Below, piece after piece: positions 430 through 19,812 of a stretch of DNA of 20,432 bases (position 1 is the stretch's first letter; the number at the start of each line of letters is the position of its first letter). Location of the stretch: positions 1 through 20,432 of the IMG/VR virus record IMGVR_UViG_3300021197_000937. The stretch is one strand, 5' to 3'. The notes under the pieces were generated by a model. The model searched no databases and had not been told where the DNA came from. It saw only the letters and a list, made by a program, of their open reading frames with translations. The position numbers and the translations under genes are program-made. The stretch comes from a virus.

Positions 430-1259
430 CAATACCAGCAATTGATTACCCCCCTGGAGCACATGGCAATTTTTTAATAAAATGTTTGAATGTTGCTAGT
501 GGATTGGTCGAAGATCAAGAATTTTATGGTAAAGACAGAGTTGGTGCGCATGCTACAGATTTTCCAGAAATAATTGTTCAAAACGCCAGTAAGGTAACAG
601 ATCAAATACACAAAGAGAAACGTTCTTGGCTTTTTATAACTCTAGATCAGGAAGACTTATACAAATTTCAGTGGCACTATCTCTATGCGAGTAACGATTT
701 TGGATTTAATGTTTTAAAGTATTTGCCTGATCAAGCTCATAAATTTTACTCAAACGATCTTTTAGTAGCAGAAAGTGTACGGGAACAATTTAAACATTTT
801 GACATACATAATATAGACAGTTGCAGAGAAATGTATAAACTAAGTTTTGGACAACATAGCGGTCATCTTACAACAATGAACCATGTATTGCAAGAATACA
901 GTCATGATTTTAGGCTACCATTCAAAACATTTTATAACAAAAAAGATTTTTTAAATTGTATACCAAAACTGTTGAACCATTTAGGATACACACAAAAACA
1001 AGATATTGAGCATCAATTTGATAACTTTATAAAAAAGAAGCAAAGTATTATTGATAGTGAACAACGAGTACTCCGAGCATTTGCTTGTTATAAAGATAAA
1101 ACGCCAATGGACATCAGCGATTTTGTACTATATGAACAGGCATATTTAGATTACTTAATTGAAAAATATCTATGCAATACTAGACTAATAGTATATAATA
1201 GCGGATATCCAAAAAACACAATAGATATAGAACACAGGTTAGAGGCAGAATATGTTTGA
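426..1259 (+). CDS. Hypothetical protein with a P-loop-like N-terminus (possible sulfotransferase-like)
   Basis: 277 aa. The N-terminus DYPPGAHGNFLIKCL (residues 7-21) has the look of a phosphate-binding loop at the end of a first beta strand, as in sulfotransferase-like or kinase folds. It is not a canonical Walker A, because the GKS/T is missing. The segment FKTFYNKKDFLNCIPKLLNHLGY resembles the late helical region of phage sulfotransferase-like proteins. There is no membrane segment. The gene is visibly more AT-rich than its neighbours and uses TCN serine codons more often, which suggests an acquired cargo gene. It sits between the partial gene and the mini-DnaE gene with overlaps of 4 and 8 bp. 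The sulfotransferase assignment is a weak inference; only the ORF itself is well supported. Confidence 0.7.
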   Translation: MTIPAIDYPPGAHGNFLIKCLNVASGLVEDQEFYGKDRVGAHATDFPEIIVQNASKVTDQIHKEKRSWLFITLDQEDLYKFQWHYLYASNDFGFNVLKYLPDQAHKFYSNDLLVAESVREQFKHFDIHNIDSCREMYKLSFGQHSGHLTTMNHVLQEYSHDFRLPFKTFYNKKDFLNCIPKLLNHLGYTQKQDIEHQFDNFIKKKQSIIDSEQRVLRAFACYKDKTPMDISDFVLYEQAYLDYLIEKYLCNTRLIVYNSGYPKNTIDIEHRLEAEYV

Positions 1260-1818
1260 TATGCCAGATGTAGACATCGACTTTGGTGATCGCACACAGT
1301 TGTTAAAACATGTGCCTAGTGTAGGTGCAAGACTTGAAAACGGAAACAAACACAACACTGGTGTTTACTTTAACAGTATTCCACAAGCGCATGATGGACT
1401 AGCAACACTGGATCATAAACGTGCAGAGGAACTGGGTTACTTTAAATTGGACTTGTTGAACGTTGGCGTTTACACAAATGTAAGAGATGAACTACACTTG
1501 GTAGAACTTATGCGTGAGCCTAACTGGAGTAAACTACATAACAGAGATTTCTTTGAGCAACTAATACATGTAGGTAAACACTTTGAAACAATGGCAAAAA
1601 TGCCTGAGGACATTACAAGCATCCCTCGTATGGCAATGTTTCTTGCAGTCATACGCCCTGCTAAACGTCATCTCATAGGGCAAACATGGGCAGAGGTAGC
1701 AAACACAGTATGGGACAAAGCAGGACTGGATAGTTATAGTTTCAAGAAAAGTCACAGTGTAGCCTATGCGCAACTAGTAGCAGTACATATGAATATATTA
1801 GAGGAAGCAAATGAGTAA
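1252..1818 (+). CDS. Miniature DnaE-like (DNA polymerase III alpha palm) protein
   Basis: 188 aa, against more than 1,000 aa for cellular DnaE. Landmarks of the family C polymerase palm appear in the right order. PDVDIDF (residues 5-11) matches the PDFDVDF motif of E. coli DnaE, with two catalytic Asp. NKHNTGVYF (32-40) resembles GKHAGGVVI. YFKLDLLN (63-70) resembles KFDFLGL, with the third catalytic Asp. LAVIRPAKR (131-139) resembles the ALFRPGPL segment, and FKKSHSVAYA (164-173) resembles FNKSHSAAYA. The PHP domain, the GRGS motif, most of the thumb, the clamp-binding region and the OB-fold are absent. All three metal-binding Asp appear kept. I recall similar short DnaE-like proteins in T4-like cyanophages (unverified). 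Whether it polymerises DNA or is a structural relic with another role is unknown. It overlaps the upstream and downstream genes by 8 bp each. Confidence 0.8.
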   Translation: MFDMPDVDIDFGDRTQLLKHVPSVGARLENGNKHNTGVYFNSIPQAHDGLATLDHKRAEELGYFKLDLLNVGVYTNVRDELHLVELMREPNWSKLHNRDFFEQLIHVGKHFETMAKMPEDITSIPRMAMFLAVIRPAKRHLIGQTWAEVANTVWDKAGLDSYSFKKSHSVAYAQLVAVHMNILEEANE

Positions 1819-4207: not shown

Positions 4208-5173
4208 ATGAATAGTATCCAACAAGCAGTAATAGATAGTTTGCCCGGCAAGCAAAAGCGTACTACTAACGGCTGGATTTCGTTCAATGCTGTATGCTGT
4301 CATCACAATGGCGAAAGCATGGACAAGCGTAGTAGAGGCGGAGTTATTGCAAACGGCGAAGCAATAAGTTATCACTGTTTTAACTGCAACTTTAAAACAG
4401 GATGGCAACCAGGTAGACATATTAGTTTTAAAATGCGTAAACTACTAACGTGGTTAAACGTAGATGAAAACACAAGACAGATGCTTAATATCGAAGCACT
4501 GCGTATTAAAGACACAGTAGTAGTTGAAAATGTTGAAGAAGAAAAGTTTGAAATAAAATTTAAACCTAGACCTTTGCCTGATAACACAGTAACATTAGCA
4601 GATGCTCCGCAACACATACAGGACTATGTTGCACAACGTGGACTAGACAGCACACGTTTACTATATAGTGATACTAAGCCTGCAGGTATGTGGAAGCGTT
4701 TTATTATCCCTTGTACATATAAAAACAAATTAATTGGTTACACCGCAAGAACAACAGATGAAAACAGCAAGCCAAAGTATCACAACAGTTACGACACAGG
4801 CTATGTATATGGCATGGACGATCAATTACCCAATGCAAAGTTTGTTGTTGTGACAGAAGGTATACTAGATGCCATGTGTATTGGTGGTGTAGGCATACTT
4901 AGCAACAATGCTAGTGAAACACAAGCAGAGATTATTGACACACTTGCTCGTGAGGTTATACTAGTACCAGACAGAGACAGTGCAGGGCAACGTCTAATCG
5001 ACGATGCACTGGAGTATGGATGGAGTGTAAGTTTCCCTGAATGGGAGTCGGATGTAAAAGACATCAATGACGCAGTTGTGCGTTATGGTAAACTGTTTAC
5101 ACTTAAAAGTATTGTGGATGCAAAGCAAACAATGAGTTTAAAAATTAATCTTAGGCGTAAAAAATATGTATAG
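4208..5173 (+). CDS. DNA primase (T4 gp61-like, TOPRIM)
   Basis: 321 aa. An N-terminal zinc-binding region has CCHH (30-33) and CFNC (57-60). A TOPRIM catalytic core follows: VVVTEGILDAM (213-223) supplies the metal-binding Glu217, VPDRDSAG (253-260) the DxD motif, and SDVKDINDAV (281-290) the third acidic segment. This architecture is that of phage and bacterial DnaG-type primases and matches T4 gp61, which makes RNA primers with the gp41 helicase. The gp41-like helicase is encoded 0.9 kb downstream. The ATG lies 5 bp after the SGNH stop and has no clear ribosome binding site. Its 3' end overlaps the radical SAM start by 8 bp. The basic tail (LKINLRRKKYV) may be for DNA contact. Confidence 0.88.
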   Translation: MNSIQQAVIDSLPGKQKRTTNGWISFNAVCCHHNGESMDKRSRGGVIANGEAISYHCFNCNFKTGWQPGRHISFKMRKLLTWLNVDENTRQMLNIEALRIKDTVVVENVEEEKFEIKFKPRPLPDNTVTLADAPQHIQDYVAQRGLDSTRLLYSDTKPAGMWKRFIIPCTYKNKLIGYTARTTDENSKPKYHNSYDTGYVYGMDDQLPNAKFVVVTEGILDAMCIGGVGILSNNASETQAEIIDTLAREVILVPDRDSAGQRLIDDALEYGWSVSFPEWESDVKDINDAVVRYGKLFTLKSIVDAKQTMSLKINLRRKKYV

Positions 5174-6038
5174 CATTACGCTTGAGCCTACTACTAGATG
5201 CACACTTGCTTGTCCGCGGTGTGCAAGAACAACCTTGCTTGATAAATTTGGAACACAAGGATTAACTATTGCAGACTTAAATCCAGCCAGTGTTAAAAAC
5301 TTCTTTGATTTGCCCGTAGAATATTTTTATTTAGGCGGAACATACGGAGATCCAATTTTACATCCTAAACTAGATCAATTGGTTGCAAGTTGTAAAACAC
5401 ATGCTCCGAGAGTAGTTATAAACACTAGCGGAAGCGGCAGGAATAAAGCATGGTGGGAACAGTTTTTAGACTGTCTTGGACCTGATGATACAGTTGAGTT
5501 TGCAGTTGATGGATTGCCTGAAAACTTTACACAATATCGAATTAATGCAAAGTGGGATCAAATTGAAACTGCTATAAAATTGTGTGCAGGGCGTGTAAAA
5601 ACAATATGGAAATACATTCCATTTAGTTTTAACGAGCATGATGTTGCTAGTGCAAAACAACTTAGCCAAGACTTGGGTATAGATCAATTCAATATTGAAC
5701 CAAGTGATAGATGGTTAGATAACGATTGGTTAAAACCAAAACAATTTACAGGACCAAAAGAAATTACAAAAGAAAATTATAAACAAGTAAAAACTATTTC
5801 ACCAAAGTGTTCCAATTATAGAAATCAATACATCAGCGCACAAGGGCATTTTTTACCGTGTTGCTTTGTGCATGATTATAGATTTTATTACAAGTCAGAT
5901 TGGTGGAAGGATAGAGACAAGTACGATATAAGTAAAACTACTTTTTCAGAATGTATTAGACATTTTGACAAGTTCTATAGTACAATAAAACAAGTTAAAC
6001 CAGATTACTGTGTTTACAACTGTGGAAAATGTGAATGA
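5166..6038 (+). CDS. Radical SAM protein with SPASM-like C-terminal cysteines
   Basis: 290 aa. TTRCTLACPRCAR (9-21) holds the CxxxCxxC motif (Cys12, Cys16, Cys19) that binds the 4Fe-4S cluster of radical SAM enzymes. It is followed by LGGTYGDPILHP (56-67), the usual SAM-contact strand. The C-terminal part carries Cys215, the pair Cys232-Cys233, Cys263, and Cys282, Cys286 and Cys289, consistent with an auxiliary-cluster SPASM-like domain as in peptide- or carbohydrate-modifying members. The substrate is unknown and no precursor peptide is obvious nearby. The gene overlaps primase by 8 bp and helicase by 4 bp (ATGA), so it sits inside the primosome operon, yet it is more AT-rich than both. It is probably an acquired auxiliary gene. 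Confidence 0.85.
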   Translation: MYSITLEPTTRCTLACPRCARTTLLDKFGTQGLTIADLNPASVKNFFDLPVEYFYLGGTYGDPILHPKLDQLVASCKTHAPRVVINTSGSGRNKAWWEQFLDCLGPDDTVEFAVDGLPENFTQYRINAKWDQIETAIKLCAGRVKTIWKYIPFSFNEHDVASAKQLSQDLGIDQFNIEPSDRWLDNDWLKPKQFTGPKEITKENYKQVKTISPKCSNYRNQYISAQGHFLPCCFVHDYRFYYKSDWWKDRDKYDISKTTFSECIRHFDKFYSTIKQVKPDYCVYNCGKCE

Positions 6039-7435
6039 CAAAAGATTATACAGCAGACTTACAAAAACTATTTTTAGAGATGATGTTGCATGATGCACAG
6101 AACTTTGTGCGTGTGCAAAACATCTACAACGTGGATAACTTTGATCGTAGTTTGTATGATACTGCAGTGTTTGTAAAAGAACACAGTGACGAACATGGTG
6201 CATTGCCTACTGCACAACAAGTACAAGCAGTAACAGGTGTTGAATTAAAACCTGTGCCGGATATTAACGAAAGCCATAACGACTGGTTCCTTGTAGAGTT
6301 TGAAGGATTCACCAAGCGACAGGAACTAGAACGTGCTATTCTCAAGAGTGCAGACCTGCTTGAGAAAGGCGAATACGAACCAGTTGAAAAGATCATTAAA
6401 GATGCTGTACAAATTAGTTTAACAAAAGACATGGGTACAGATTACTTTGAAGATCCTAGAGCAAGACTTTTAGCTCTTAAAGACAATAACGGACAGATTA
6501 GCACAGGCTGGCCCGCTATGGATCGTAAACTGTTTGGTGGTATGAACAAGGGAGAACTTAATATTTTTGCAGGTGGATCAGGATCAGGCAAGAGTTTGTT
6601 CATGCAGAACCTAGCAGTTAACTGGGTAACACAAGGACTAAATGGTGTGTATTTGACACTGGAACTTAGCGAAGGTCTTAGTGCTATGCGTATTGATAGC
6701 ATGCTTACAAATGTAAGCACCAAAGAGGTATTCAAAGACTTGGATACTGTTGAGATGAAAGTTAAGATGACAGGCAAGAAAGCAGGTAACTTGCAAATCA
6801 AATACATGCCTGCCCAGAGTAACGTTAATGATATTCGCGCATACTTGAAAGAACTACAGATCAAGAACAACTGGCAAGTAGACTTCTTGCTGATTGATTA
6901 CTTGGATTTGCTTATGCCAGTAAGTGCTAAAGTAAGCCCAAGTGACTTGTTTGTTAAGGACAAGTACGTTAGTGAGGAACTACGCAACTTGGCTAAGGAA
7001 CTAGACTGTGTGTTTGTAACAGCCTCGCAGTTAAACAGAGGTGCAGTTGATGAAATAGAGTTTGATCATTCGCACATTAGTGGTGGACTTAGTAAGATCA
7101 ACACAGCAGATAACGTGTTTGGTATCTTTACAAGTCGTGCAATGCGCGAGCGTGGACGCTATCAGATACAGTTAATGAAAACTAGAAGTAGTAGTGGCGT
7201 TGGTCAAAAGATTGACCTGGAGTTTGATATTGAAAGTCTGCGTATCCGAGACTTGGGTGAGGATGAAGAATATCAACAGTTTAAGAAACAGAGTAGTAGT
7301 ATCTATGATCAACTTAAAAACAAAGACAGTGGTGGTGTAGTTGATGCAGGTGATGAGCCTTCAGGTAAGATCACTGCAAGTGTACAAAGCAGCAAACTAA
7401 AAAACATGCTTGCTGGACTTAAAACTAGTGACTAA
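6035..7435 (+). CDS. Replicative DNA helicase (T4 gp41/DnaB-like)
   Basis: 466 aa, close to the length of T4 gp41 (about 475). A helical N-terminal domain (about 1-130) is followed by a RecA-like motor. Walker A is GGSGSGKS (180-187), preceded by GMNKGELNIFAG. LTLELSE (207-213) fits motif H1a with its catalytic Glu. Walker B is FLLIDYLDLL (284-293). A motif H3-type segment VTASQLNR (328-335) has the conserved Gln, and MKTRSSSGVG (381-390) is a likely arginine-finger/H4 region. It would form a hexamer unwinding DNA 5' to 3' and recruit the primase at 4208. The start ATG overlaps the radical SAM stop by 4 bp. Its 3' end overlaps the convergent DnaE-like gene by 11 bp. Confidence 0.92.
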   Translation: MTKDYTADLQKLFLEMMLHDAQNFVRVQNIYNVDNFDRSLYDTAVFVKEHSDEHGALPTAQQVQAVTGVELKPVPDINESHNDWFLVEFEGFTKRQELERAILKSADLLEKGEYEPVEKIIKDAVQISLTKDMGTDYFEDPRARLLALKDNNGQISTGWPAMDRKLFGGMNKGELNIFAGGSGSGKSLFMQNLAVNWVTQGLNGVYLTLELSEGLSAMRIDSMLTNVSTKEVFKDLDTVEMKVKMTGKKAGNLQIKYMPAQSNVNDIRAYLKELQIKNNWQVDFLLIDYLDLLMPVSAKVSPSDLFVKDKYVSEELRNLAKELDCVFVTASQLNRGAVDEIEFDHSHISGGLSKINTADNVFGIFTSRAMRERGRYQIQLMKTRSSSGVGQKIDLEFDIESLRIRDLGEDEEYQQFKKQSSSIYDQLKNKDSGGVVDAGDEPSGKITASVQSSKLKNMLAGLKTSD

Positions 7436-9125
7436 GGTACTGATCTAGTCTGTGCCCTTTTGCATCCCAGCAATCAATATAACGACTGCCATTACTCATG
7501 CGTACCTTGCCGCTGCCTGCAACTACATCTGTGTCTTTGTATCCAAAAGGCTTTTTAATAGTAACATCTACATACTCGCCATTGTTAACACCAAGTGTTA
7601 CAAACGTAACATAACGTCCACCTTCGCCTCTGAACACACGCCCATTAGCAACCAGTCCTGCAAAGTTTACTCTGTCACCCCAAGTCTCTTGTACAAACAT
7701 ATTAGGCATAAACTCTGGTTGTGTCCAATATCCATGACGTTTGTACTGTTGCTGTGGACTTTCTGTAATGCCGTTTGGGTATCCTAGTTCACGCAGATCC
7801 CAGCCAGCGTTCTTTGCTTCTGTTTTGTGTACCCAGCGTTTGTAACTGCCTTGGCAGTGTTTAAGTGCTGCCCGCCAAAACTCCTTAGGGTTGTGTGCTT
7901 TTTGATATGCAAGTGCCCATATAAGTCTGCCCAAGTTTACAGCGTGTGCTCTACACAATCCAAAACTGCCTAGCCCATATAGTTCTTGTATGATCTGTTC
8001 TTTGTTTTCACTCTCGCCCATGCGTTCCATGAACTGCATAACTTTTTGTTCGTCACGTTTTGCAAACGCACGACGATACATGTCTGCTTCATACATGTCG
8101 CAGTCGATAAGTTTTGCTATTTTACGAATAGCATCATCTTCATATACAATAGTATCTTCTAAACGTTGTTCAGTCCAGTCTTGAAAGAACGCTGCTTTTT
8201 GTCTGCCTGTAGTAGCAACAGGTCTAATAAGTGCAGTAGCAAATACACAGTCTGATTTGCTTTGTGGTTGTATCGCTTGGAACAGTCTGCGCATTGCTGG
8301 CGACTCTGCTTGTGTTACTCCAATAACTTCTCCTCTGCAAAGCATTTGACTTGTTTCAAAGTCCTGTTCAGGATATGCTTCCAGTGGTGTTTCGCTATCT
8401 ATCTCTAACAGTTGGCTAAGTCCTCTGTTAGCAAGTATGTCTATTTTTAAATGTTCTAGGTCTTCTACTTCACGTTTGTCTAGTAGTATTTGATTGTCTG
8501 CGTTGATTAAACTTTTCGGTATCTTGTGATTGAATACAAGTATGCCTCCGCAGTGTTTCGATATTGCTTTCTTTTTGCCTATTAGTTTTCGTTCGATTCT
8601 CATTGCTTCTTCCTTGTCTATGTCTAAATCTTCGTACTTAAAATTGCGAGGAAGTTTACCAGATGCGCCAAGACGTCGTGCTGCTTCTCTGCGAGCACCG
8701 CGCTCCTTATAGGTAACATAGTTGCTGATCCTGGCACTTTTGCCGGGCCATTTATCAAATATCCGTTGCATTACAGCGTTCTGTTGCCAATGTGGAAAGT
8801 CTATATCCACATCTGGTAAATCATCTCTCAAAGGATTTAGGAAACGTGCAACCGGTATCTGCCATCTTATGGGATCCACGTCTGTAATACCCAGTAGGTA
8901 ACAGACGAGACTAGACCCTGCTGAACCACGAGTCATATGAGTAATGTCACGGGTTAGCGTCAGTACATCGCAAATTGTGAGGAAGTAATCGACGAAACGA
9001 AGTTTGAGAATAATCTCTAGTTCTTCGATAAGCCTGTTATGATATTCAGCATTGTTCGGAATATGCCTTATGAATCTGCCTAGTAATCGTTCTAATTGAG
9101 CCGTTGCGTCCTTAGGTAACTTCAT
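7425..9125 (-). CDS. DnaE-type (family C) DNA polymerase core lacking a PHP domain
   Basis: 566 aa. It begins almost directly at the palm. TRGSAGSSLVCYLLGITDVDP (65-85) equals the GRGS region. FLNPLRDDLPDVDIDF (95-110) carries catalytic Asp107 and Asp109, and LKIDIL (226-231) the third Asp229. SKHCGGILVF (189-198) equals GKHAGGVVI. VGVTQAESPAMRRLF (268-282), then TALIRPVATTGR (297-308), EADMYRRAFAKRDE (346-359) and YGLGSFGLCRAHAVNLG (383-399) follow as in the fingers. The C-terminus (about 486-550, VNFAGLVANGRVFRGEGGRYVTF) fits the DnaE OB-fold. The N-terminal PHP domain is absent and I see no clamp-binding QxxxLF-type peptide. A ribosome binding site (AGAGG) precedes the ATG. Transcription opposes the helicase. 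Related to DnaE and DnaE2/ImuC; which one is closer I cannot tell. Confidence 0.9.
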   Translation of the reverse strand: MKLPKDATAQLERLLGRFIRHIPNNAEYHNRLIEELEIILKLRFVDYFLTICDVLTLTRDITHMTRGSAGSSLVCYLLGITDVDPIRWQIPVARFLNPLRDDLPDVDIDFPHWQQNAVMQRIFDKWPGKSARISNYVTYKERGARREAARRLGASGKLPRNFKYEDLDIDKEEAMRIERKLIGKKKAISKHCGGILVFNHKIPKSLINADNQILLDKREVEDLEHLKIDILANRGLSQLLEIDSETPLEAYPEQDFETSQMLCRGEVIGVTQAESPAMRRLFQAIQPQSKSDCVFATALIRPVATTGRQKAAFFQDWTEQRLEDTIVYEDDAIRKIAKLIDCDMYEADMYRRAFAKRDEQKVMQFMERMGESENKEQIIQELYGLGSFGLCRAHAVNLGRLIWALAYQKAHNPKEFWRAALKHCQGSYKRWVHKTEAKNAGWDLRELGYPNGITESPQQQYKRHGYWTQPEFMPNMFVQETWGDRVNFAGLVANGRVFRGEGGRYVTFVTLGVNNGEYVDVTIKKPFGYKDTDVVAGSGKVRMSNGSRYIDCWDAKGHRLDQYLSH

Positions 9126-9916: not shown

Positions 9917-10180
9917 ATGCGTAAACAGACCCGTAGTATACTACACGAACTAAACAGCATGATTGTTGAAAAAGACAGACAGCATGTATTGGAAAGTCGA
10001 GCAACTAACGTGATAGAGAGCGCAATCAATCTTATTAATGAAATGCACAAGCATTATGATGACGATACTGCAGGCGACTTAGAGCGCCGACTATTAAACA
10101 GTATTAAACATCAGGATAGCAAACGTTTTGTGCGAGGTATTCGGAAAGTTAACGAAAGCAAATGCGCTTCAGAGAAATAG
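9917..10180 (+). CDS. Small helical phage protein of unknown function
   Basis: 87 aa, mostly predicted alpha-helix, strongly charged, with no membrane segment. The N-terminus MRKQTRSILHELNSM resembles a basic amphipathic helix with LHE, which could fit a gp21-type L/I-x-E cleavage site, though less well than the following genes. The C-terminal part (KRFVRGIRKVNESK) is basic. It has a good ribosome binding site (AGGAT, spacing about 8) and is the first gene after the paired early and late promoters. It overlaps the next gene by 19 bp. I do not recognise the family. Confidence 0.75.
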   Translation: MRKQTRSILHELNSMIVEKDRQHVLESRATNVIESAINLINEMHKHYDDDTAGDLERRLLNSIKHQDSKRFVRGIRKVNESKCASEK

Positions 10181-11385
10181 TAGCCGAGGCTGCTGAAGGC
10201 AAAAATTTACACTTAGAACACATTGAGGATCTAGTATTTCTTCAAGGTACTAGTGGTGCCAACAGTGCGCTACAGTATATTAACAGTGTGCGTGATATGC
10301 TAGAAGAAGGCGGCACAGTAAACAGTAGTGTAACTGTAAAGTGGGATGGTGCACCTGCTATCTTTGTAGGCACAGATCCAGCAGACGGCAAGTTTTTTGT
10401 TGGCACTAAAGGCGTGTTTAGTAAAACAGGCAAACTTGTTAAAAGCACTGCAGACCTTGACAAGTATGGGTACAGCGGCGGCTTGCGTGACAAATTAACA
10501 CTTGCACTAAAACTACTTCCAAGTTTAGGTATAAAAGGTGTGCTACAAGGCGACATGATGTATACCAAAAGTGATTTAGAAACTGCTGATATTGACGGCG
10601 AGTCGAGTTGGATATTCCAGCCTAACACGATTGCGTATGCTGTTCCTAAAAACAGTGAATTAGGCAAGCGTATTGCATCAAGTCAAATGGGTATTATATT
10701 CCACACAACCTACACAGGCGACAGCATGGAAAACATGCAAGCAAGTTTTGGCGCCAATGTAAATGAACTAAACAAGACCAGTGCAGTGTGGTTTGATGAT
10801 GCGACTTATAAAGATTTGAGTGGGCAAGCAAGTCTCACACAACAAGAAAACAAACAAATACTACAAGGACTAAATGCTGCAGCAGGCGCACTTAAAACTG
10901 CAGACTTTACAGCAGTTAGTGGTGACTACAAAGAACTTATGATGCAGTATGTTAATGCAAGAATACGCAGAGGCGATACACAAATAGATGATGCGCAGAG
11001 TTTTGCCACAGACTTTACACAGTGGTACAATGATTACATACAAAAAGAAATTGCAAAACTAAAGAATCAAGACCCTGAGAGTCCTGCAGTTAAGAAGCGC
11101 ACGGATAAAATTGAAGCACAGAATAAGTTTGTCGGTGATAATATGACAGGCATTGCAAGCGCACTAGCAGTGTACAAAGACATTATTGCATTGAAAAATA
11201 TGCTTATAAATAAATTAAATAAAGTAGACAGTGTTAAGTCACTGTTGCGTACAGATACAGGTTATGAAGTAACAAACCCAGAAGGCTTTGTTGCTATTGG
11301 CAGTGATAGCGGTGCAGTGAAACTAGTTGACCGCATGGAGTTTAGTAAAAACAACTTCAATGCTGTTAAGAATTGGAGCAAGTAA
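10162..11385 (+). CDS. DUF6267-like protein with nucleotidyltransferase/ligase motifs
   Basis: 407 aa. I recall close relatives in T4-like cyanophages under the DUF6267 name. The order of motifs matches the covalent nucleotidyltransferase (RNA/DNA ligase, capping) superfamily. KWDGAPAIF (60-68) equals motif I KxDG with Lys60 as the candidate AMP acceptor. GVLQGDMMY (126-134) equals motif III. EGFVAI (374-379) equals motif IV. VKLVDRMEF (386-394) equals motif V. A helical, Lys-rich insertion of about 200 residues separates III from IV, and no C-terminal OB-fold follows. The N-terminus MRFREIVAEA closely resembles the T4 internal-protein capsid-targeting peptide MKTYQEFIAEA, cleaved after Glu by gp21. 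So it may be packaged in the head. Enzyme activity is an inference. Confidence 0.8.
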   Translation: MRFREIVAEAAEGKNLHLEHIEDLVFLQGTSGANSALQYINSVRDMLEEGGTVNSSVTVKWDGAPAIFVGTDPADGKFFVGTKGVFSKTGKLVKSTADLDKYGYSGGLRDKLTLALKLLPSLGIKGVLQGDMMYTKSDLETADIDGESSWIFQPNTIAYAVPKNSELGKRIASSQMGIIFHTTYTGDSMENMQASFGANVNELNKTSAVWFDDATYKDLSGQASLTQQENKQILQGLNAAAGALKTADFTAVSGDYKELMMQYVNARIRRGDTQIDDAQSFATDFTQWYNDYIQKEIAKLKNQDPESPAVKKRTDKIEAQNKFVGDNMTGIASALAVYKDIIALKNMLINKLNKVDSVKSLLRTDTGYEVTNPEGFVAIGSDSGAVKLVDRMEFSKNNFNAVKNWSK

Positions 11386-12215
11386 TGAGAGCAAAAGAAT
11401 TTATCAGTGAAGATAAGCAGAAGTTAGATGAAATTGCGCCACTTGCTGTTGCCGGTTGGGCTCTTACTGCTGGTACTGCAGCCTGGCAAGCATACGACAC
11501 TTACAATGATATTCAAACATATAATAAAAGTGGAAAAACTGAAGCAGACTTGGATAAACTAAAAGCAGCAATTGGCATGGATACTCTTGCACTAGTTGCA
11601 GGCGGCGCGGCTGGCAAACTAGTTGGCAAAACTATTAGTCTAGGCGCAACACCATTTCAGGCTGTAAAAAAAATATACGATGCGAAAAAGCAAGCAGCCG
11701 CAGCTAAACAGGCTGCTGAAAAAAGTGCAAAGGCTGCTGAAAAGGTTGCTAAAAAAACTGCACCAATGAAAAGCGTAAAAACTCCAGGCGCAAGCACCAG
11801 TATTGGAAGTACAGCTACAAAAGCAACACAACCTAAGACAGCAACACAAAAAATTAAAGATTTTGTTAAAGGACCTGGCGATGAAGCAGCAGGCGCTGCA
11901 GCAGCAAAACTTGCTAAAAAGAAAACATCAAAAGGTGATGTTAGTAAATCTGCAGGTGCAACAGCCGGCAAAACAACAAGCAAATTGAAACCTCCTTTAA
12001 AGGCTACAACTGCTGCCGGCGCACTAGCAGGAAAAGCAGCCATTGATGCATTTGATAAATTAAACAAAGGATTTGATGACTGGGAAAAGAATCGCAATGC
12101 TGCCAATACAGCAGGTGCTAACAGTTATGTGTACACAGGTGATAAAAAAAATCCGCCTAAGAGTGACTTTGTTGCAAAGAATCTAGACCTAGAACGATTA
12201 AAGGCAAAAAAATAA
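11385..12215 (+). CDS. Lys/Ala-rich basic protein with capsid-targeting-like N-terminus
   Basis: 276 aa from the ATG at 11385, which overlaps the previous stop (TAATG). A TTG 12 bp upstream is open but unlikely. The N-terminus MRAKEFISED fits the T4 internal-protein targeting signal, with cleavage expected after ISE. A hydrophobic segment (about 18-37) and a glycine-rich one (about 67-85) come next. They are followed by a long low-complexity region (about 97-215) of Lys, Ala, Thr and Ser with AAAKQAAEKSAKAAEK-type repeats, like the histone H1 tail. This fits a DNA-condensing internal head protein or one ejected with the DNA, possibly with membrane activity. It is conserved in style only; I do not know a named family. 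Long antisense ORFs here are shadows of the Ala-rich composition. Confidence 0.75.
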   Translation: MRAKEFISEDKQKLDEIAPLAVAGWALTAGTAAWQAYDTYNDIQTYNKSGKTEADLDKLKAAIGMDTLALVAGGAAGKLVGKTISLGATPFQAVKKIYDAKKQAAAAKQAAEKSAKAAEKVAKKTAPMKSVKTPGASTSIGSTATKATQPKTATQKIKDFVKGPGDEAAGAAAAKLAKKKTSKGDVSKSAGATAGKTTSKLKPPLKATTAAGALAGKAAIDAFDKLNKGFDDWEKNRNAANTAGANSYVYTGDKKNPPKSDFVAKNLDLERLKAKK

Positions 12216-12874
12216 TGGCGTTTGAATTTATCAGAGAAGAAATTACAGAAGCACGTTATATCCGCAGTGCAGCAGATACAATTGGTAGAGACATGACTGA
12301 CATTGGTGAAAGTTTCTTTGAGCAACTATTAATGCTACAGCAAATGCGTTTTGAGAATCCAAAATTTGCAGCCAAGTATGCCAAAGACACACTAAAGTTT
12401 ATGAATTTTAGTAGCGTAAAGCCTGGTGCAACTGATTTGCACAACCTTGCAAGTATTATTGCTAATCCAAGCAAGTATAAAGGCGTAACCAGCGGCGGCG
12501 CAGTTGGATTTGATGAACTAGGATTTAAACGTTACTTGCGTGACATTGCAGCAGGCAGAAGTAACACTGCAATGGATAGAACATTCCTAATGAAGCAGCA
12601 ACGTAATTTGAGTATTAAGAACACTTTTCTTAAACAAGCAAGACGTGCAAGTGCAGATTATGGACGCACAAGTGCAGGCGAGCGCACTGGACTTAGTGCA
12701 AGAATGGTAAACAGTCAACGTCAAGATGGCAAGTTTCGCAGTGATATTAGCAAGCAGTATATGGGCACTGTAGCAAATAAAAAACTTGTTCCCAAAGATG
12801 CAGGCTTGCCACTATGGGCTAAAGCTGCAGGCGGATTTGCAGCCGGTGTTCTTCTTAGTAAAGCAATAGACTAA
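12215..12874 (+). CDS. Putative capsid-internal or virion protein
   Basis: 219 aa. The N-terminus MAFEFIREEITEARYIR fits the capsid-targeting pattern, with a possible gp21 cleavage after ITE and Ala next. The middle is helical with basic residues (RFLM-type QQRNLSIKNTFLKQARRAS). The C-terminus ends in a hydrophobic glycine/alanine helix (about 200-214, LWAKAAGGFAAGVLL), which could enter a membrane on ejection. The start shares one base with the previous stop, so coupling with the Lys/Ala-rich gene is tight and the two probably work together. There is no known domain. It is the last gene before a late-promoter motif at 12892. Confidence 0.7.
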   Translation: MAFEFIREEITEARYIRSAADTIGRDMTDIGESFFEQLLMLQQMRFENPKFAAKYAKDTLKFMNFSSVKPGATDLHNLASIIANPSKYKGVTSGGAVGFDELGFKRYLRDIAAGRSNTAMDRTFLMKQQRNLSIKNTFLKQARRASADYGRTSAGERTGLSARMVNSQRQDGKFRSDISKQYMGTVANKKLVPKDAGLPLWAKAAGGFAAGVLLSKAID

Positions 12875-14205: not shown

Positions 14206-14475
14206 ATGATTTTAAGTGAACTTACTGAAGGTATGACATGGGCAAAGCGCGGCAACAAAGTTGTTCGCAAGTTTCGCTGTGTCAGCGGCAGACGCAAAAG
14301 CCGCGTAGTTAGTTCGCCAGCACAATGCTTTGCAGCACCAGATCTTAAGAAGCGTATTAAAATGAAAATGACTCGTGCAAGACTTGGAGCAAGAATGGCT
14401 CGCAAAGCAAAGAAAACAAAAAGAGTTAATCCAGCAAGTAAACGTGTAGCAGCACTAAACAAGGCAAGCAGATGA
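14206..14475 (+). CDS. Small, highly basic phage protein
   Basis: 89 aa, very rich in Lys and Arg. After MILSELTEGM the chain reads TWAKRGNKVVRKFRCVSGRR, then KSRVVSSPAQCF and LKKRIKMKMTRARLGARMARKAKKTKR. I recall near relatives in T4-like marine phages, without a known function. Two Cys are separated by 21 residues. The composition suggests DNA or RNA binding, for example inside the head. The first residues (MILSELTEG) fit a gp21-type site L-T-E before Gly, so the first ten residues may be removed; Met10 is an alternative start. It has a late promoter motif directly at the ATG. Its stop overlaps the next start by 4 bp (ATGA). Confidence 0.75.
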   Translation: MILSELTEGMTWAKRGNKVVRKFRCVSGRRKSRVVSSPAQCFAAPDLKKRIKMKMTRARLGARMARKAKKTKRVNPASKRVAALNKASR

Positions 14476-14753
14476 AAATATTAGAAGCACAGCATGGCGT
14501 ATTAACAGGCAAAACTGTAACTATAAATGAAGCACAGTATGTGCTTCAAAACATACAGGGCTTTACTGCTACACTAAGTGATCCCAATGATCCACGCATA
14601 ACTTTCAAACTTAATCTTGCAAACAAGAAGATTGATATGTCCGGCGCTGGCGGTATTGAAATTACAGACGAACTTACACCTGCAGAACGTGCAAATCTTA
14701 TTCGCGGCGCAAAAGGTGCAATGGTCAATGTAAACGTAAGCAGTATTAGATAA
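14472..14753 (+). CDS. Hypothetical protein, small beta-rich
   Basis: 93 aa. Predicted strands dominate (GKTVTINEAQYVLQNIQGF, FKLNLANKKIDM), followed by an acidic helix (DELTPAERANLIRGAKGAM). The N-terminus MKILEAQHG contains I-L-E before Ala, compatible with a gp21-type cleavage site. There is no membrane segment or known domain. It overlaps the preceding basic gene by 4 bp, and its stop shares a base with the next start (TAATG), so it is part of a tightly coupled run of small genes. It is likely to be virion-associated by context only. Confidence 0.65.
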   Translation: MKILEAQHGVLTGKTVTINEAQYVLQNIQGFTATLSDPNDPRITFKLNLANKKIDMSGAGGIEITDELTPAERANLIRGAKGAMVNVNVSSIR

Positions 14754-14980
14754 TGCGTTTTGTAGAATTTACAAGTGGTCTTCAGACTTTTGTAACCAAG
14801 GAGGAGCAGGAGCTCATTGAAACAATGAGTAAAGGTCCTGTGAAAAAAAGAGATTTAAATGAGAGAGAACAACAAGTGGCACGCCGCTTAACTGAAAAAT
14901 CTATCCTAACAAGGCAAAAGCAAGATGACAGCATCTATTATAAACTTTCCAAGGCAGCAAACTCTACATCAACGTATTGA
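14753..14980 (+). CDS. Small protein with winged-helix-like pattern
   Basis: 75 aa. The pattern EEQELIETMSKGPVKKRDLN, then EREQQVARRLTEKSILTRQK and DSIYYKLS, resembles a small winged helix: a helix, a turn, a recognition-type helix, then a beta hairpin. This is a fold guess. The start ATG overlaps the previous stop. The last 56 bp are shared, in another frame, with the next gene, an unusually long overlap for this genome, so the tail (KAANSTSTY) may be poorly constrained. The N-terminus MRFVEFTSG has the general look of the targeting peptides but no L/I-x-E. Function unknown. Confidence 0.6.
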   Translation: MRFVEFTSGLQTFVTKEEQELIETMSKGPVKKRDLNEREQQVARRLTEKSILTRQKQDDSIYYKLSKAANSTSTY

Positions 14981-16377: not shown

Positions 16378-16658
16378 TGGAAAAGATTGACGAAGCAACA
16401 CAACTAGACGGAATTTTTAGTGTAGAACATCAAGGAGCTCTACTGTCGCTTACAATTGAGATCCGTAAATTTTTTGATACTATAGACAAAAAACTTGATC
16501 TTCCAGGTGATCTACAACTTAGTCTTATGAATCAAGTAGGTGATATGCAGGATAATGTCGGTCAATATATTGATAAAAAACGAAAAGAAATGAGCCAAGA
16601 GTCTATAGGTGAGCAAGAACTTGCAGACCTTAAACAAGCACTAGGAAAGTTCAAGTGA
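16377..16658 (+). CDS. Small helical protein with ELADLKQALG motif
   Basis: 93 aa, predicted helical throughout (LSLTIEIRKFFDTIDKKLDL, then LMNQVGDMQDNVGQYIDKKRK) and ending in EQELADLKQALGKFK, which matches the C-terminal helix of the preceding protein. There is no membrane segment. The ATG shares a base with the previous stop, and the stop overlaps the GTG start of the next gene (GTGA). The shared helix suggests a common docking motif within an assembly complex. Function unknown. Confidence 0.65.
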   Translation: MEKIDEATQLDGIFSVEHQGALLSLTIEIRKFFDTIDKKLDLPGDLQLSLMNQVGDMQDNVGQYIDKKRKEMSQESIGEQELADLKQALGKFK

Positions 16659-17716
16659 GATTTTACGAAGTAGATAGTAGTATTGATGCTATAATGAGTG
16701 CAGCTATGGTTGCACAAACCCGTGCTAGTAATACTGGCAAACAGGGTAAACTAAGCATGAACGGCTTTCTACAAATGCTTGCTAACGCAGGTATTATGAT
16801 GGATTATGACGGATTTAAAACAGTTTTCGACACTAATCCTCAACTAAAGAATGTTATTGCACAGTTCAACAAAGACGAGATTACATTTGTTGGCAACAGT
16901 GATGACGAAGGCGCAGGATATGAGGAGCCGCAAGGCGACATGCCAGATGATGAGCGTGTAGCAAAAATGGCAAAAAGAGCAACTAAGATGAGAACTGAAG
17001 AATTTGTTGAGGATTACGAAGTACTTCCAAAGATGGATAGAGACAAGTATCAAGAGCGTGATGGACTAGAAGGTCCTATAATGACACGTTCAGGTAAAGT
17101 TGTTTACTATGATAATAAAGAAGGCAAATACTATGACCCAGATACAGACATGTATTTGTCCTACGATGATTATAAAATGTTGGATAAAAAAGCAAATGAA
17201 GCAGAACTTCCGCCACACCTAAGTAAAATGTTTGGCAAAGACGGCAGTCAAGTTGAAACACGAACAGATGTTATGAAACAGATGCGCGACATTGTAGACA
17301 AAAAGAGTGCAATGGAAGTTACGTTTGGTGATGGTAAGCAAATGGTTGACATGTATACAGCAAGTGTACTTGTACAAGTCTACGACAAAGTAAATGATAA
17401 AAACAAAGAAGCAATTGTACAACGTGTAGGTACAATTGAAAAGTTTATGAAACTTATGCCTAAATTGTTTAACATGATTAGCGAAGGTGATAGCCCACAT
17501 CCGAAAGGCAGTAAAAAGTACAAAGCACACATGGCTGCAAAGCATGCAAACATGAGTGAAGGCAAAAGCATGGAAGATAAGATTGCTGCTGACATTGAAG
17601 CAGGCATGAGTACTGATGCAATTATTGGCAAGTATGCTAACAAGCGTACTACAAACACAGATGAGATTCGTAAGATCATACAACGTATTAAGTTTAAAAA
17701 CTTTAGGAACAAATAA
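16655..17716 (+). CDS. Hypothetical virion-associated protein
   Basis: 353 aa, starting with GTG in a 4-bp overlap (GTGA). The N-terminus MRFYEVDSS resembles the MR-F-x-E opening of its neighbours. A central Tyr/Asp-rich segment (150-173: VYYDNKEGKYYDPDTDMYLS, then YDDY) and a basic motif GDSPHPKGSKKYKAHMAAKH (278-297) stand out. The latter is a motif I associate with marine T4-like phage proteins. A C-terminal helical domain (about 305-345, IAADIEAGMSTDAIIGKY) looks like a small DNA-binding helical bundle. There is no membrane segment. The acidic stretch DDEGAGYEEPQGDMPDDE (83-100) is probably disordered. Role not known; the context suggests assembly or internal virion function. Confidence 0.7.
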   Translation: MRFYEVDSSIDAIMSAAMVAQTRASNTGKQGKLSMNGFLQMLANAGIMMDYDGFKTVFDTNPQLKNVIAQFNKDEITFVGNSDDEGAGYEEPQGDMPDDERVAKMAKRATKMRTEEFVEDYEVLPKMDRDKYQERDGLEGPIMTRSGKVVYYDNKEGKYYDPDTDMYLSYDDYKMLDKKANEAELPPHLSKMFGKDGSQVETRTDVMKQMRDIVDKKSAMEVTFGDGKQMVDMYTASVLVQVYDKVNDKNKEAIVQRVGTIEKFMKLMPKLFNMISEGDSPHPKGSKKYKAHMAAKHANMSEGKSMEDKIAADIEAGMSTDAIIGKYANKRTTNTDEIRKIIQRIKFKNFRNK

Positions 17717-18083: not shown

Positions 18084-19124
18084 ATGCACACTAGCGAATT
18101 TAATCGCAGAATGAAGTTCGCATTTATGAATGACGATCCATTTGGTGTACTAAGTGCTATCTATAACAATGAATTGCCTCATCCTTATTTTGATCCTAAA
18201 CTTATAGGTTTTAGTAAGTTAAGAGATTTCAATCACAATACATGGCTTTCTAGAGAACAAAGCAATAGGATAATTGTATTTGAAGATTTAGAATATATTA
18301 TACCTGGTGAAAAATTTAACTGGGATGCAGTAGGCGATCCTCCCTGTACTGAACAAGACAAATTAATTACAAGCAGTATCACAGTCAATGATCATCTTTG
18401 GCCATGTGAATATGCATTTAGTAGTTGGCATCTTGTACAAACACATATGCAAAACGCTGAAACTTTTGTTGAACAACCAGATACAAGACCTTATTTTGCA
18501 GACATACTGTTAGGAAATCTCAAAACACAACGCAAACAATTCTATAATCTGTTACAAGAAAACAATCAGTTAGAAAACAATCTAGTAAATGCATTCGGGG
18601 TATATAAAACTCCTTTTTTAGATCAAGGCATAGGAGAAATAGATTTGTTTTTCAATAATCTTGATACTAGCGGTGACTACGCAAATACTACCAAGCATTT
18701 TAAAGGTAACTTTGCAAGTCAGTATATAAGCAAACACGTTCAACAAGCAAGTTGGATAAGTGTAGTAGCAGAAACATTAGACGATAATAGAATATTTTTT
18801 CCTACCGAAAAAACAGGCAAAGCACTAATGAGCGGTAAACCTTTTATTGTACTGAGCAGTAAACACTTCCTTAAAAATTTAAGAAGTATAGGATTCAAAA
18901 CTTTTCATCCAATAATAGATGAAAGTTACGATTTAATTGACAGTGTAGAATCGCGCACAAGAGCGGCATATTCCAGTTTTATAGAATTGCAAAAACAAGA
19001 TCCCATTATAGTAAGAAAAAAATTAAAAGATGTCTTAGAACACAATGAACAGTGCATGCGAGACAAATCATTTCTAACACAGAGAGCAAGAAACTTATTG
19101 CAAAATCTGCAAACTAGTGTATAA
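18084..19124 (+). CDS. Glycosyltransferase-like hypothetical protein
   Basis: 346 aa. The segment WISVVAETLDDNRIFFPTEK (224-243), then TGKALMSGKPFIVLSSKHFL (244-263) and KNLRSIGFKTF (264-274), resembles the donor-binding region of fucosyltransferase-like (GT10) and related phage glycosyltransferase-like proteins: E-T-x(5-8)-F-x-TEK-x-x-K-x-L-x-x-GKPFIV. The N-terminal 220 residues are unrelated to anything I know. There is no signal peptide. The gene is visibly AT-rich, uses TTT, AGA and TCN codons more than its neighbours, and lies between virion-type and nuclease genes, so it looks acquired. A carbohydrate-modifying role, on host surface or phage DNA, is a guess from the motif. Confidence 0.65.
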   Translation: MHTSEFNRRMKFAFMNDDPFGVLSAIYNNELPHPYFDPKLIGFSKLRDFNHNTWLSREQSNRIIVFEDLEYIIPGEKFNWDAVGDPPCTEQDKLITSSITVNDHLWPCEYAFSSWHLVQTHMQNAETFVEQPDTRPYFADILLGNLKTQRKQFYNLLQENNQLENNLVNAFGVYKTPFLDQGIGEIDLFFNNLDTSGDYANTTKHFKGNFASQYISKHVQQASWISVVAETLDDNRIFFPTEKTGKALMSGKPFIVLSSKHFLKNLRSIGFKTFHPIIDESYDLIDSVESRTRAAYSSFIELQKQDPIIVRKKLKDVLEHNEQCMRDKSFLTQRARNLLQNLQTSV

Positions 19125-19131
19125 TAATACT

Positions 19132-19812
19132 ATGTTAGTAGAGCGATACAATTATGCTCCGATCAATAGAAAAACTATTGACGGAAAGAGGCACTATGCT
19201 ACTCCGGATGGAGGTGCTGTGCCTAGTGTTACAACAATACTGGACAAGACCAAAGGCGAGGAAAAGCGAAAAGCATTAGCAAACTGGAAGAAACGTGTAG
19301 GTGAAGCCAAAGCACAACAGATTGTTACTGAAGCAGCAGGCAGAGGCACTAGACTACACAAGTGGCTTGAAGATTATGTAATCACCGGTGATATAGGCGA
19401 GCCTGGCAGTAATCCATACAGCCAACAAAGTCATAAGATGGCAAATATTATACTCGAGCATGGACTAAAAAATGCAAACGAGTATTGGGGTACAGAAGTG
19501 CCACTTTACTACAGCGGACTTTACGCAGGTACTACAGACTTAGTTGGTGTACACGATGGTGCTCCTGCAATCATGGACTTTAAACAAACCAATAAACCAA
19601 AGAAAACTGAATGGGTAGAGGATTACTTCCTACAACTTTGTGCCTATGCACATGCACACAATAACATGTTTGAAACTACTATCAACAAAGGTGTAATACT
19701 TATGTGCAGTAAAGACTACCAGTATCAAGAATGGATACTAGAAGGAGCTGCATTTGACCACTACAGCAATATTTGGTTTGATAGAGTAGCACAGTACTAC
19801 GGGCAAGGATAA
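19132..19812 (+). CDS. PD-(D/E)XK exonuclease (MGME1/RecB-like)
   Basis: 226 aa from the ATG at 19132. A GTG at 19117 would add five residues and overlap the previous gene, and neither start has a clear ribosome binding site. The motifs of the RecB-type nuclease fold are in order: PSVTTIL (31-37); GRGTRLHKWLE (70-80) with the helix His; WGTEVPL (119-125) with an acidic residue; YAGTTDLVG (131-139) with catalytic Asp136; IMDFKQTNK (147-155) with the D-x-K pair Asp149/Lys151; and FLQLCAYA (166-173) with the conserved Gln. This matches the MGME1-like exonucleases found in some T4-like phages. It would degrade DNA ends, in replication, recombination or host DNA breakdown. It is placed next to a tail-fibre gene, apart from the replication genes. 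Confidence 0.82.
   Translation: MLVERYNYAPINRKTIDGKRHYATPDGGAVPSVTTILDKTKGEEKRKALANWKKRVGEAKAQQIVTEAAGRGTRLHKWLEDYVITGDIGEPGSNPYSQQSHKMANIILEHGLKNANEYWGTEVPLYYSGLYAGTTDLVGVHDGAPAIMDFKQTNKPKKTEWVEDYFLQLCAYAHAHNNMFETTINKGVILMCSKDYQYQEWILEGAAFDHYSNIWFDRVAQYYGQG

What the first reader, a model, noticed from the sequence alone, without database searches (positions are those of the whole stretch)
10162..11385. Ligase/nucleotidyltransferase-like enzyme with a T4-type capsid-targeting N-terminus
The DUF6267-like protein shows motifs I (KWDG), III (GVLQGDMMY), IV (EGFVAI) and V (VKLVDRMEF) of the covalent nucleotidyltransferase superfamily in the right order, with no OB-fold and a large helical insertion. 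The first ten residues MRFREIVAEA nearly copy the T4 internal-protein signal MKTYQEFIAEA. Together this predicts an enzyme packaged in the head and ejected with the DNA, perhaps to seal ends, counter host RNA or tRNA cutting, or transfer AMP.
Basis: partly seen in the sequence, partly recalled or inferred. Interest (0 to 1): 0.75.

Follow-up and report, generated by a model that had tools for sequence, protein, structure and literature searches.

The report
Head-packaged ligase-like phage enzyme (DUF6267)
A widespread marine-phage protein of unknown function looks like a distant cousin of the enzymes that join RNA and DNA ends, and in this phage it carries a tag like the one phage T4 uses to load proteins into its head, so it may be injected into the host with the DNA.

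Summary
The ORF at 10162-11385 is DUF6267 (PF19782, E 2e-105), a family of unknown function found in over 460 phage records. Across 60 diverse homologues only 19 positions are invariant, including K60, D62, G63, K83, D131, E374 and K387: motifs I, Ia, III, IV and V of covalent nucleotidyltransferases. K60, K83 and K387 are the only invariant lysines of 35. A confident AlphaFold model of a short homologue (pTM 0.85) retrieves mainly DNA ligases, RNA ligases and capping enzymes from the PDB (42 of the top 50), though none reaches E < 0.001. There is no OB-fold; residues 227-355 are a helical insertion.

The leader is also real. Of 54 non-redundant leader-bearing homologues, 28 match a strict T4 internal-protein pattern (background 0.17%), and 51 carry [LIVF]xE. 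Leaderless homologues instead sit beside a cytidyltransferase gene that usually has the tag itself; such tagged enzymes were found in S-SZBM1 and S-CREM2 virions, while the leaderless DUF6267 proteins were not listed.

Packaging of this protein is inferred: no tagged DUF6267 has been tested, and no T4-type prohead protease was found in its nearest long relative. Most likely an injected AMP-transferring, RNA-ligase-like enzyme; substrate unknown. New variant of a known kind.

The parts
10162..11385 (+). DUF6267 protein (P0001, 407 aa), predicted divergent covalent nucleotidyltransferase
   Evidence: PF19782 E 2.4e-105, phrog_455 E 5.8e-104; invariant motif residues; models and Foldseek
10162..10188 (+). 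Residues 1-9 MRFREIVAE, T4-like capsid-targeting leader; predicted cut after Glu9
   Evidence: Pattern enrichment and [LIVF]xE in 51 of 54 leaders; T4 IPI/II/III and gp24 leaders; near-identical leader MRFRQFIIEA on S-SZBM1 gp140, which is a virion protein
10339..10350 (+). Motif I, KWDG (K60, D62, G63), predicted covalent lysine
   Evidence: K60, D62, G63 invariant in 60 of 60
10393..10419 (+). Motif Ia, FFVGTKGVF (K83)
   Evidence: K83 and F86 invariant in 60 of 60
10537..10563 (+). Motif III, GVLQGDMMY (Q129, D131)
   Evidence: Q129, D131 invariant in 60 of 60; in a beta strand of the model
10690..10713 (+). Motif IIIa-like, GIIFHTTY (H181, T182, Y184)
   Evidence: H181, T182, Y184 invariant
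10840..11226 (+). Helical insertion between IIIa and IV (residues 227-355)
   Evidence: All-helical in the model; much shorter in syn9-type homologues
11281..11298 (+). Motif IV, EGFVAI (E374, G375, V377)
   Evidence: Invariant; aligns with T4 Rnl1 motif IV, rank 1 of 49 profiles
11317..11343 (+). Motif V, VKLVDRMEF (K387); E374-K387 spacing is 13
   Evidence: K387 invariant; in T4 Rnl1 E227 to K240 is also 13
9917..10180 (+). Upstream 87-aa virion structural protein, overlaps the start of the DUF6267 gene
   Evidence: phrog_11854 head and packaging, E 1.3e-16
11385..12215 (+). Downstream Ala/Lys-rich protein starting MRAKEFISED, also leader-like; start codon overlaps the DUF6267 stop (TAATG)
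   Evidence: Sequence; resemblance by eye, it fails the strict pattern
12215..12874 (+). Protein starting MAFEFIREEITEA, leader-like
   Evidence: Matches the broad leader pattern only

Best explanation
DUF6267 is a divergent, OB-less member of the covalent nucleotidyltransferase fold that takes AMP onto Lys60 (inferred from motifs and fold; about 0.88). In the window's lineage it is carried into the prohead by its leader MRFREIVAE|A, trimmed after Glu9 and ejected with the DNA (inferred; about 0.75). In the cell it most likely passes AMP to RNA 5' ends and seals them, as T4 Rnl1 does, undoing host RNA or tRNA cutting before phage genes are expressed (about 0.4; substrate inferred only). In related phages it appears to work with a HIGH-type cytidyltransferase/NMNAT-like enzyme, its adjacent or fused partner.
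For: Invariant K60, D62, G63, K83, D131, E374, K387 in 60 homologues, with K60, K83 and K387 the only three invariant lysines of 35. Short-homologue model with pTM 0.85; 42 of the top 50 PDB neighbours are DNA/RNA ligases, LigA or capping enzymes from several independent families, 37 by their own description and five inferred from the entry. RNA ligases lead the weak non-family hits among viral models. PF09511 (T4 Rnl1) rings in 2 of 60 members, best E 0.017; the motif IV-V part ranks T4 Rnl1 first of 49 profiles in register. Leader pattern in 28 of 54 against 0.17% background; [LIVF]xE in 51 of 54 against a shuffle mean of 21. Tagged cytidyltransferases S-SZBM1 gp140 and S-CREM2 gp154 are virion proteins (PMC9146016; PMC10665884; N-termini). 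Four tagged relatives have gp21 and gp23 genes. Fusion in S-PM2; phrog_455 spans both domains. Kinase neighbours related to zeta toxin/polynucleotide kinase in 15 loci.
Against: No fold or profile match is significant on its own (best PDB E 0.069; no sequence relative in the PDB). The motif I-III half does not stand out against Rnl1 in HHalign (rank 32 of 49). The Foldseek hits share one fold and are not independent. No leader-bearing DUF6267 has been seen in a virion. No gp21/gp23 in the nearest long relatives. Leaderless members show the enzyme need not be packaged. Nothing here identifies the substrate. The family sits among DNA replication genes in cyanophages.
Confidence: 0.62

Rival explanations
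1. It is an intracellular polynucleotide ligase that stands in for the missing DNA ligase of these phages and acts in replication; the leader in some lineages is secondary.
For: Eight complete phage genomes carrying DUF6267 show no DNA ligase, LigA, Rnl1 or Rnl2. In cyanophages the gene lies between the gp41 helicase and gp61 primase genes. Leaderless members are common and two were not listed in virion proteomes.
Against: No OB-fold or DNA-binding domain, which ATP-dependent DNA ligases need (established knowledge). XaC1 and contig G009 carry classical ligases as well as DUF6267. The leader in the other branch is maintained across many lineages. Phages can use the host ligase.
Confidence: 0.2
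2. It is part of NAD+/AMP chemistry: it takes AMP from NAD+ or ATP and transfers it to a protein or small molecule, while the neighbouring NMNAT-like enzyme regenerates NAD+.
For: Adjacent to a HIGH-type nucleotidyltransferase in 24 of 28 leaderless non-redundant loci, fused to it in S-PM2; virion papers call these partners NMNAT-like (PMC9602691, PMC10665884). A conserved N-terminal H-x-x-H-x-E-D precedes motif I.
Against: No such partner lies near the gene in the window. NMNAT activity of the partner is itself untested. Fold neighbours are polynucleotide ligases and capping enzymes, where AMP or GMP goes to nucleic acid ends.
Confidence: 0.18
3. The leader resemblance is just a short amphipathic helix and the protein is not packaged.
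For: Short motif; no direct proteomics of a tagged member; no gp21 or gp23 found in the nearest long relatives.
Against: About 300-fold enrichment over internal Met positions, nearly fixed [LIVF]xE at the domain border, variable spacer as in T4 IPI, tagged cytidyltransferases found in virions, and virion-protein neighbours in the window.
Confidence: 0.15
4. It is a catalytically dead head or scaffold protein that kept a nucleotidyltransferase fold.
For: Clustered with virion proteins in the window.
Against: Every motif residue needed for adenylylation is invariant, which is not expected of a dead enzyme.
Confidence: 0.06

Closest known systems
T4 RNA ligase 1 (Rnl1, gp63; PF09511)
   Same: KxDG motif I, lysine in motif Ia, EG[YF]VA motif IV, 13-residue spacing from the motif IV Glu to the motif V Lys, no OB-fold
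   Different: Sequence similarity only marginal (E 0.017 in 2 of 60 members); motif III acid is Asp; a long helical insertion lies between IIIa and IV instead of a C-terminal helical domain; it is tagged for the head
T4 internal proteins IPI/IPII/IPIII and Alt (capsid-targeted, injected)
   Same: N-terminal leader of the same pattern with a predicted [LIVF]xE cut site; IPI also has a spacer before its site
   Different: The cargo is a predicted nucleotidyltransferase; the leader is absent in many members; packaging not shown
Virion-associated cytidyltransferase/NMNAT-like proteins of cyanophages (S-SZBM1 gp140, S-CREM2 gp154)
   Same: Leader of the same type (MRFRQFIIEA, MKNFSSFLTEA); gene neighbour or fusion partner of DUF6267 in other phages
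   Different: Different enzyme fold family (HIGH superfamily); these have been detected in virions
DUF6267 (PF19782) / phrog_455
   Same: Full-length match
   Different: Listed as function unknown; phrog_455 also covers a fused cytidyltransferase region

Membership tests
DUF6267 (PF19782) | Match over the curated cut-off along the whole profile | tested here: met
   353 bits against a 27-bit cut-off, profile 1-376 of 376
Covalent nucleotidyltransferase superfamily | Motifs I (KxDG), III, IV and V in order with conserved catalytic residues | tested here: met
   K60, D62, G63, D131, E374, G375, K387 invariant in 60 homologues
Covalent nucleotidyltransferase superfamily | Fold of the catalytic core | tested here: inconclusive
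   Homologue model retrieves mostly ligases and capping enzymes, 42 of the top 50, but best E 0.069 and TM-scores low
Covalent nucleotidyltransferase superfamily | Lysyl-AMP or lysyl-GMP intermediate | not testable with these tools
   Needs an auto-adenylylation assay
T4 RNA ligase 1 family (PF09511) | Profile match over the family's cut-off | tested here: not met
   P0001 has no match; best member E 0.017
ATP-dependent DNA ligase / capping enzyme | C-terminal OB-fold domain | tested here: not met
   Protein ends 20 residues after motif V with a single helix
T4-type capsid-targeted proteins | N-terminal leader with [LI]xE cut site | tested here: met
   VAE|A here (V rather than L/I); pattern enriched across the family
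T4-type capsid-targeted proteins | T4-type prohead protease (S77) in the same phage | tested here: inconclusive
   Present in four more distant tagged relatives; not found in the 131 and 145 kb nearest relatives
T4-type capsid-targeted proteins | Trimmed protein present in virions | not testable with these tools
   Needs virion proteomics; published data read here cover leaderless members only

The most novel reading that the evidence does not exclude
Marine T4-like and related phages inject a ready-made repair kit: a head-packaged ligase-like nucleotidyltransferase (DUF6267), a tagged HIGH-type nucleotidyltransferase, and in some phages a polynucleotide-kinase-like enzyme, acting in the first minutes on host or phage RNA. 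The tag sits on DUF6267 itself or on its adjacent partner, depending on lineage.
Probability: 0.3. Interest if true: 0.85.

Novelty: new variant of a known kind. Interest (0 to 1): 0.64.

Why it matters
It would give a biochemical function to a protein family found in over 460 sequenced phages, mostly of the ocean's dominant cyanobacteria, and would add a ligase-type enzyme to the few known enzymes packaged in phage heads and injected. It also suggests why cytidyltransferases keep turning up in cyanophage virion proteomes: they carry a T4-like capsid tag. Both claims can be tested directly with simple assays.

Tried and rejected
Sequence and profile searches of the PDB gave only coiled-coil artefacts from the helical insertion. 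Foldseek with the full-length window model gave no usable PDB match, probably because of that insertion; a shorter homologue was modelled instead. HHalign of the whole or the N-terminal half against T4 Rnl1, Rnl2 and DNA ligase did not beat 46 unrelated control families; only the motif IV-V part did. No relative in plasmids and no near DNA relative in phage records. No anti-phage defence family match for P0001. No paper in the library mentions DUF6267. Filing it as a DNA ligase was rejected for lack of an OB-fold; filing it as Rnl1 was rejected because the family cut-off is not met. PA5oct was considered for virion proteomics but not pursued.

Full report
What is there. The ORF at 10162-11385 (+) encodes 407 residues. 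It is a full-length DUF6267 protein (PF19782, E 2.4e-105; phrog_455), a family with no assigned function and no mention in the paper library. tblastn finds relatives in 408 phage records with P0001 and 466 with a more central member, mostly cyanophages, plus pelagiphage HTVC008M, Methylophilales, Stenotrophomonas, Vibrio and Xanthomonas phages, and none in plasmids. The window is itself a 20.4 kb virus record. The gene is flanked by virion-type proteins: phrog_11854 upstream, and further downstream phrog_16215 and phrog_14154, all 'virion structural protein'.

Enzyme motifs. In an alignment of 60 diverse homologues (27-74% identical to P0001) only 19 positions are invariant: H20 K60 D62 G63 G70 K83 F86 Q129 D131 Y159 H181 T182 Y184 E374 G375 V377 K387 F394 N398. 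Of 35 lysines in P0001 only K60, K83 and K387 are invariant; the only invariant acidic residues are D62, D131 and E374. This is the residue set of motifs I, Ia, III, IV and V of covalent nucleotidyltransferases (established knowledge of ligases and capping enzymes). The distance from the motif IV Glu to the motif V Lys is 13 residues both here and in T4 Rnl1 (E227, K240).

Fold. The model of P0001 from 34 sequences is moderate (pLDDT 78, pTM 0.67). It shows beta strands at every motif, a helical block at 227-355, and a single helix after motif V, so no OB domain. That model found no usable PDB relative; among viral models it found its own family, then weak RNA ligases at ranks 17 and 21. A short syn9-type homologue was therefore modelled from 64 sequences (pLDDT 88, pTM 0.85). 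Of its top 50 PDB neighbours 42 are covalent nucleotidyltransferases: DNA ligases I, III and IV, archaeal ligases, LigA, T4 Rnl2, trypanosome RNA editing ligase, Naegleria RNA ligase and mRNA capping enzymes (37 by their own description, five inferred from the entry). No hit passes E < 0.001 (best 0.069) and TM-scores are low, so this is strong as a pattern and weak per hit; the hits share one fold and are not independent. Sequence evidence points the same way but is marginal: PF09511 (T4 Rnl1) matches 2 of 60 members, best E 0.017; by HHalign the motif IV-V segment ranks T4 Rnl1 first of 49 profiles in the right register, while the N-terminal half does not stand out.

Leader. T4 IPII and IPIII begin MKTYQEFIAEA, and IPI begins MKTFKEF...TITEA. 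The T4 capsid-targeting sequence is known to be the one conserved part of these injected proteins, and it has been used to encapsidate foreign proteins (PMC3012670). Among 54 non-redundant DUF6267 homologues with a leader, 28 match a strict IPII/III-like pattern, against 24 of 14304 internal Met positions in other ORFs; 51 of 54 contain [LIVF]xE, against 21 expected from shuffled leaders (maximum 33 in 2000 shuffles). Spacer length varies, as in IPI. The pattern was chosen after seeing the T4 and family sequences, and the homologues are related, so the numbers are indicative. The window's own leader, MRFREIVAEA, is almost the same as that of S-SZBM1 cytidyltransferase gp140, MRFRQFIIEA, which was detected in S-SZBM1 virions (PMC9146016).

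Two arrangements. A second branch of the family has no leader (MAKNTHLEHLED). There a cytidyltransferase gene lies directly downstream in 24 of 28 non-redundant loci, against 6 of 49 in the leader branch (Fisher p 1.4e-10, ignoring shared ancestry), and 20 of those 24 carry the leader themselves (examples). In S-PM2 the two are one 591-aa protein, which has no leader, so the tag is not universal; phrog_455 covers both domains. Published virion proteomes fit: S-SZBM1 and S-CREM2 list the tagged cytidyltransferase, and neither lists its leaderless DUF6267 in the table passages read (gp141 and gp87). S-SM1 virions also contain a putative cytidylyltransferase (PMC3037559). Absence from a proteome is weak evidence. 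The authors of the S-CREM2 and S-SCSM1 studies caution that such proteins may be carry-over.

T4 likeness of this lineage. Four more distant relatives with leaders (contigs G002, G008, G009, G010) carry T4-type prohead protease and gp23. The nearest long relative, G001 (75% identical, 131 kb), has a contractile-tail sheath, tail tube and large terminase but no gp21 or gp23 match; head genes were not found and it looks incomplete. G004 (145 kb) also lacks both. G001's DUF6267 begins MRLREFKNRKQINEIAP and has a longer N-terminal extension.

What it most likely does. Shown: family, invariant motifs, no OB-fold, leader pattern. Inferred: Lys60-AMP, packaging, trimming after Glu9, ejection, RNA end sealing. 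RNA sealing is preferred to DNA sealing because the OB-fold is missing, as in Rnl1, and because some loci also encode a zeta-toxin/polynucleotide-kinase-like enzyme (15 loci). The main rival is a replicative ligase: eight complete phages with DUF6267 have no recognised ligase of four families and the cyanophage gene sits among replication genes. An NAD+/AMP role with the NMNAT-like partner is also open. Phage RNA repair by Rnl1/Rnl2 after tRNA cutting is well known (PMC7824862), as is head packaging of ADP-ribosyltransferases (PMC9503650); the passages read do not describe this family.

Noticed in passing
L258:1400-2521, L217, L121, L195, L223, L245 (gene directly upstream of DUF6267): Several unrelated protein families upstream of DUF6267 share a D...(I/V)S(L/H/A)K pattern like PD-(D/E)XK nucleases; one matches a type II restriction enzyme model (E 2.3e-11). 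The pattern is read by eye for the others.
   Followed up: partly
window 1252-1818 (+) and 7425-9125 (-): Two separate DNA polymerase III alpha-like pieces on opposite strands (phrog_11778 and phrog_405), suggesting a split polymerase.
   Followed up: no
L118:7975-10533, L224:5051-7192, L111:7585-11013, L107:6901-9705: Long ORFs that match the P-loop kinase query and start with a HIGH-type nucleotidyltransferase-like sequence (read by eye), near DUF6267.
   Followed up: no
window 5166-6038 (+): Radical SAM-like protein (phrog_21308) between primase and helicase genes.
   Followed up: no
L180:7703-10168 (S-CRM01 kinase): The S-CRM01 kinase gene encodes MISFDQFLSEKK, a leader-like start; kinases were reported in S-CRM01 virions (cited in PMC10665884).
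   Followed up: no
window 14472-14980 and 16655-17716: Further virion-cluster proteins begin MKILEAQ, MRFVEFT, MRFYEVD, similar in style to the leader but without a clear xE cut site.
   Followed up: no
window 19117-19812 (+): PD-(D/E)XK exonuclease (phrog_298, E 5e-54).
   Followed up: no
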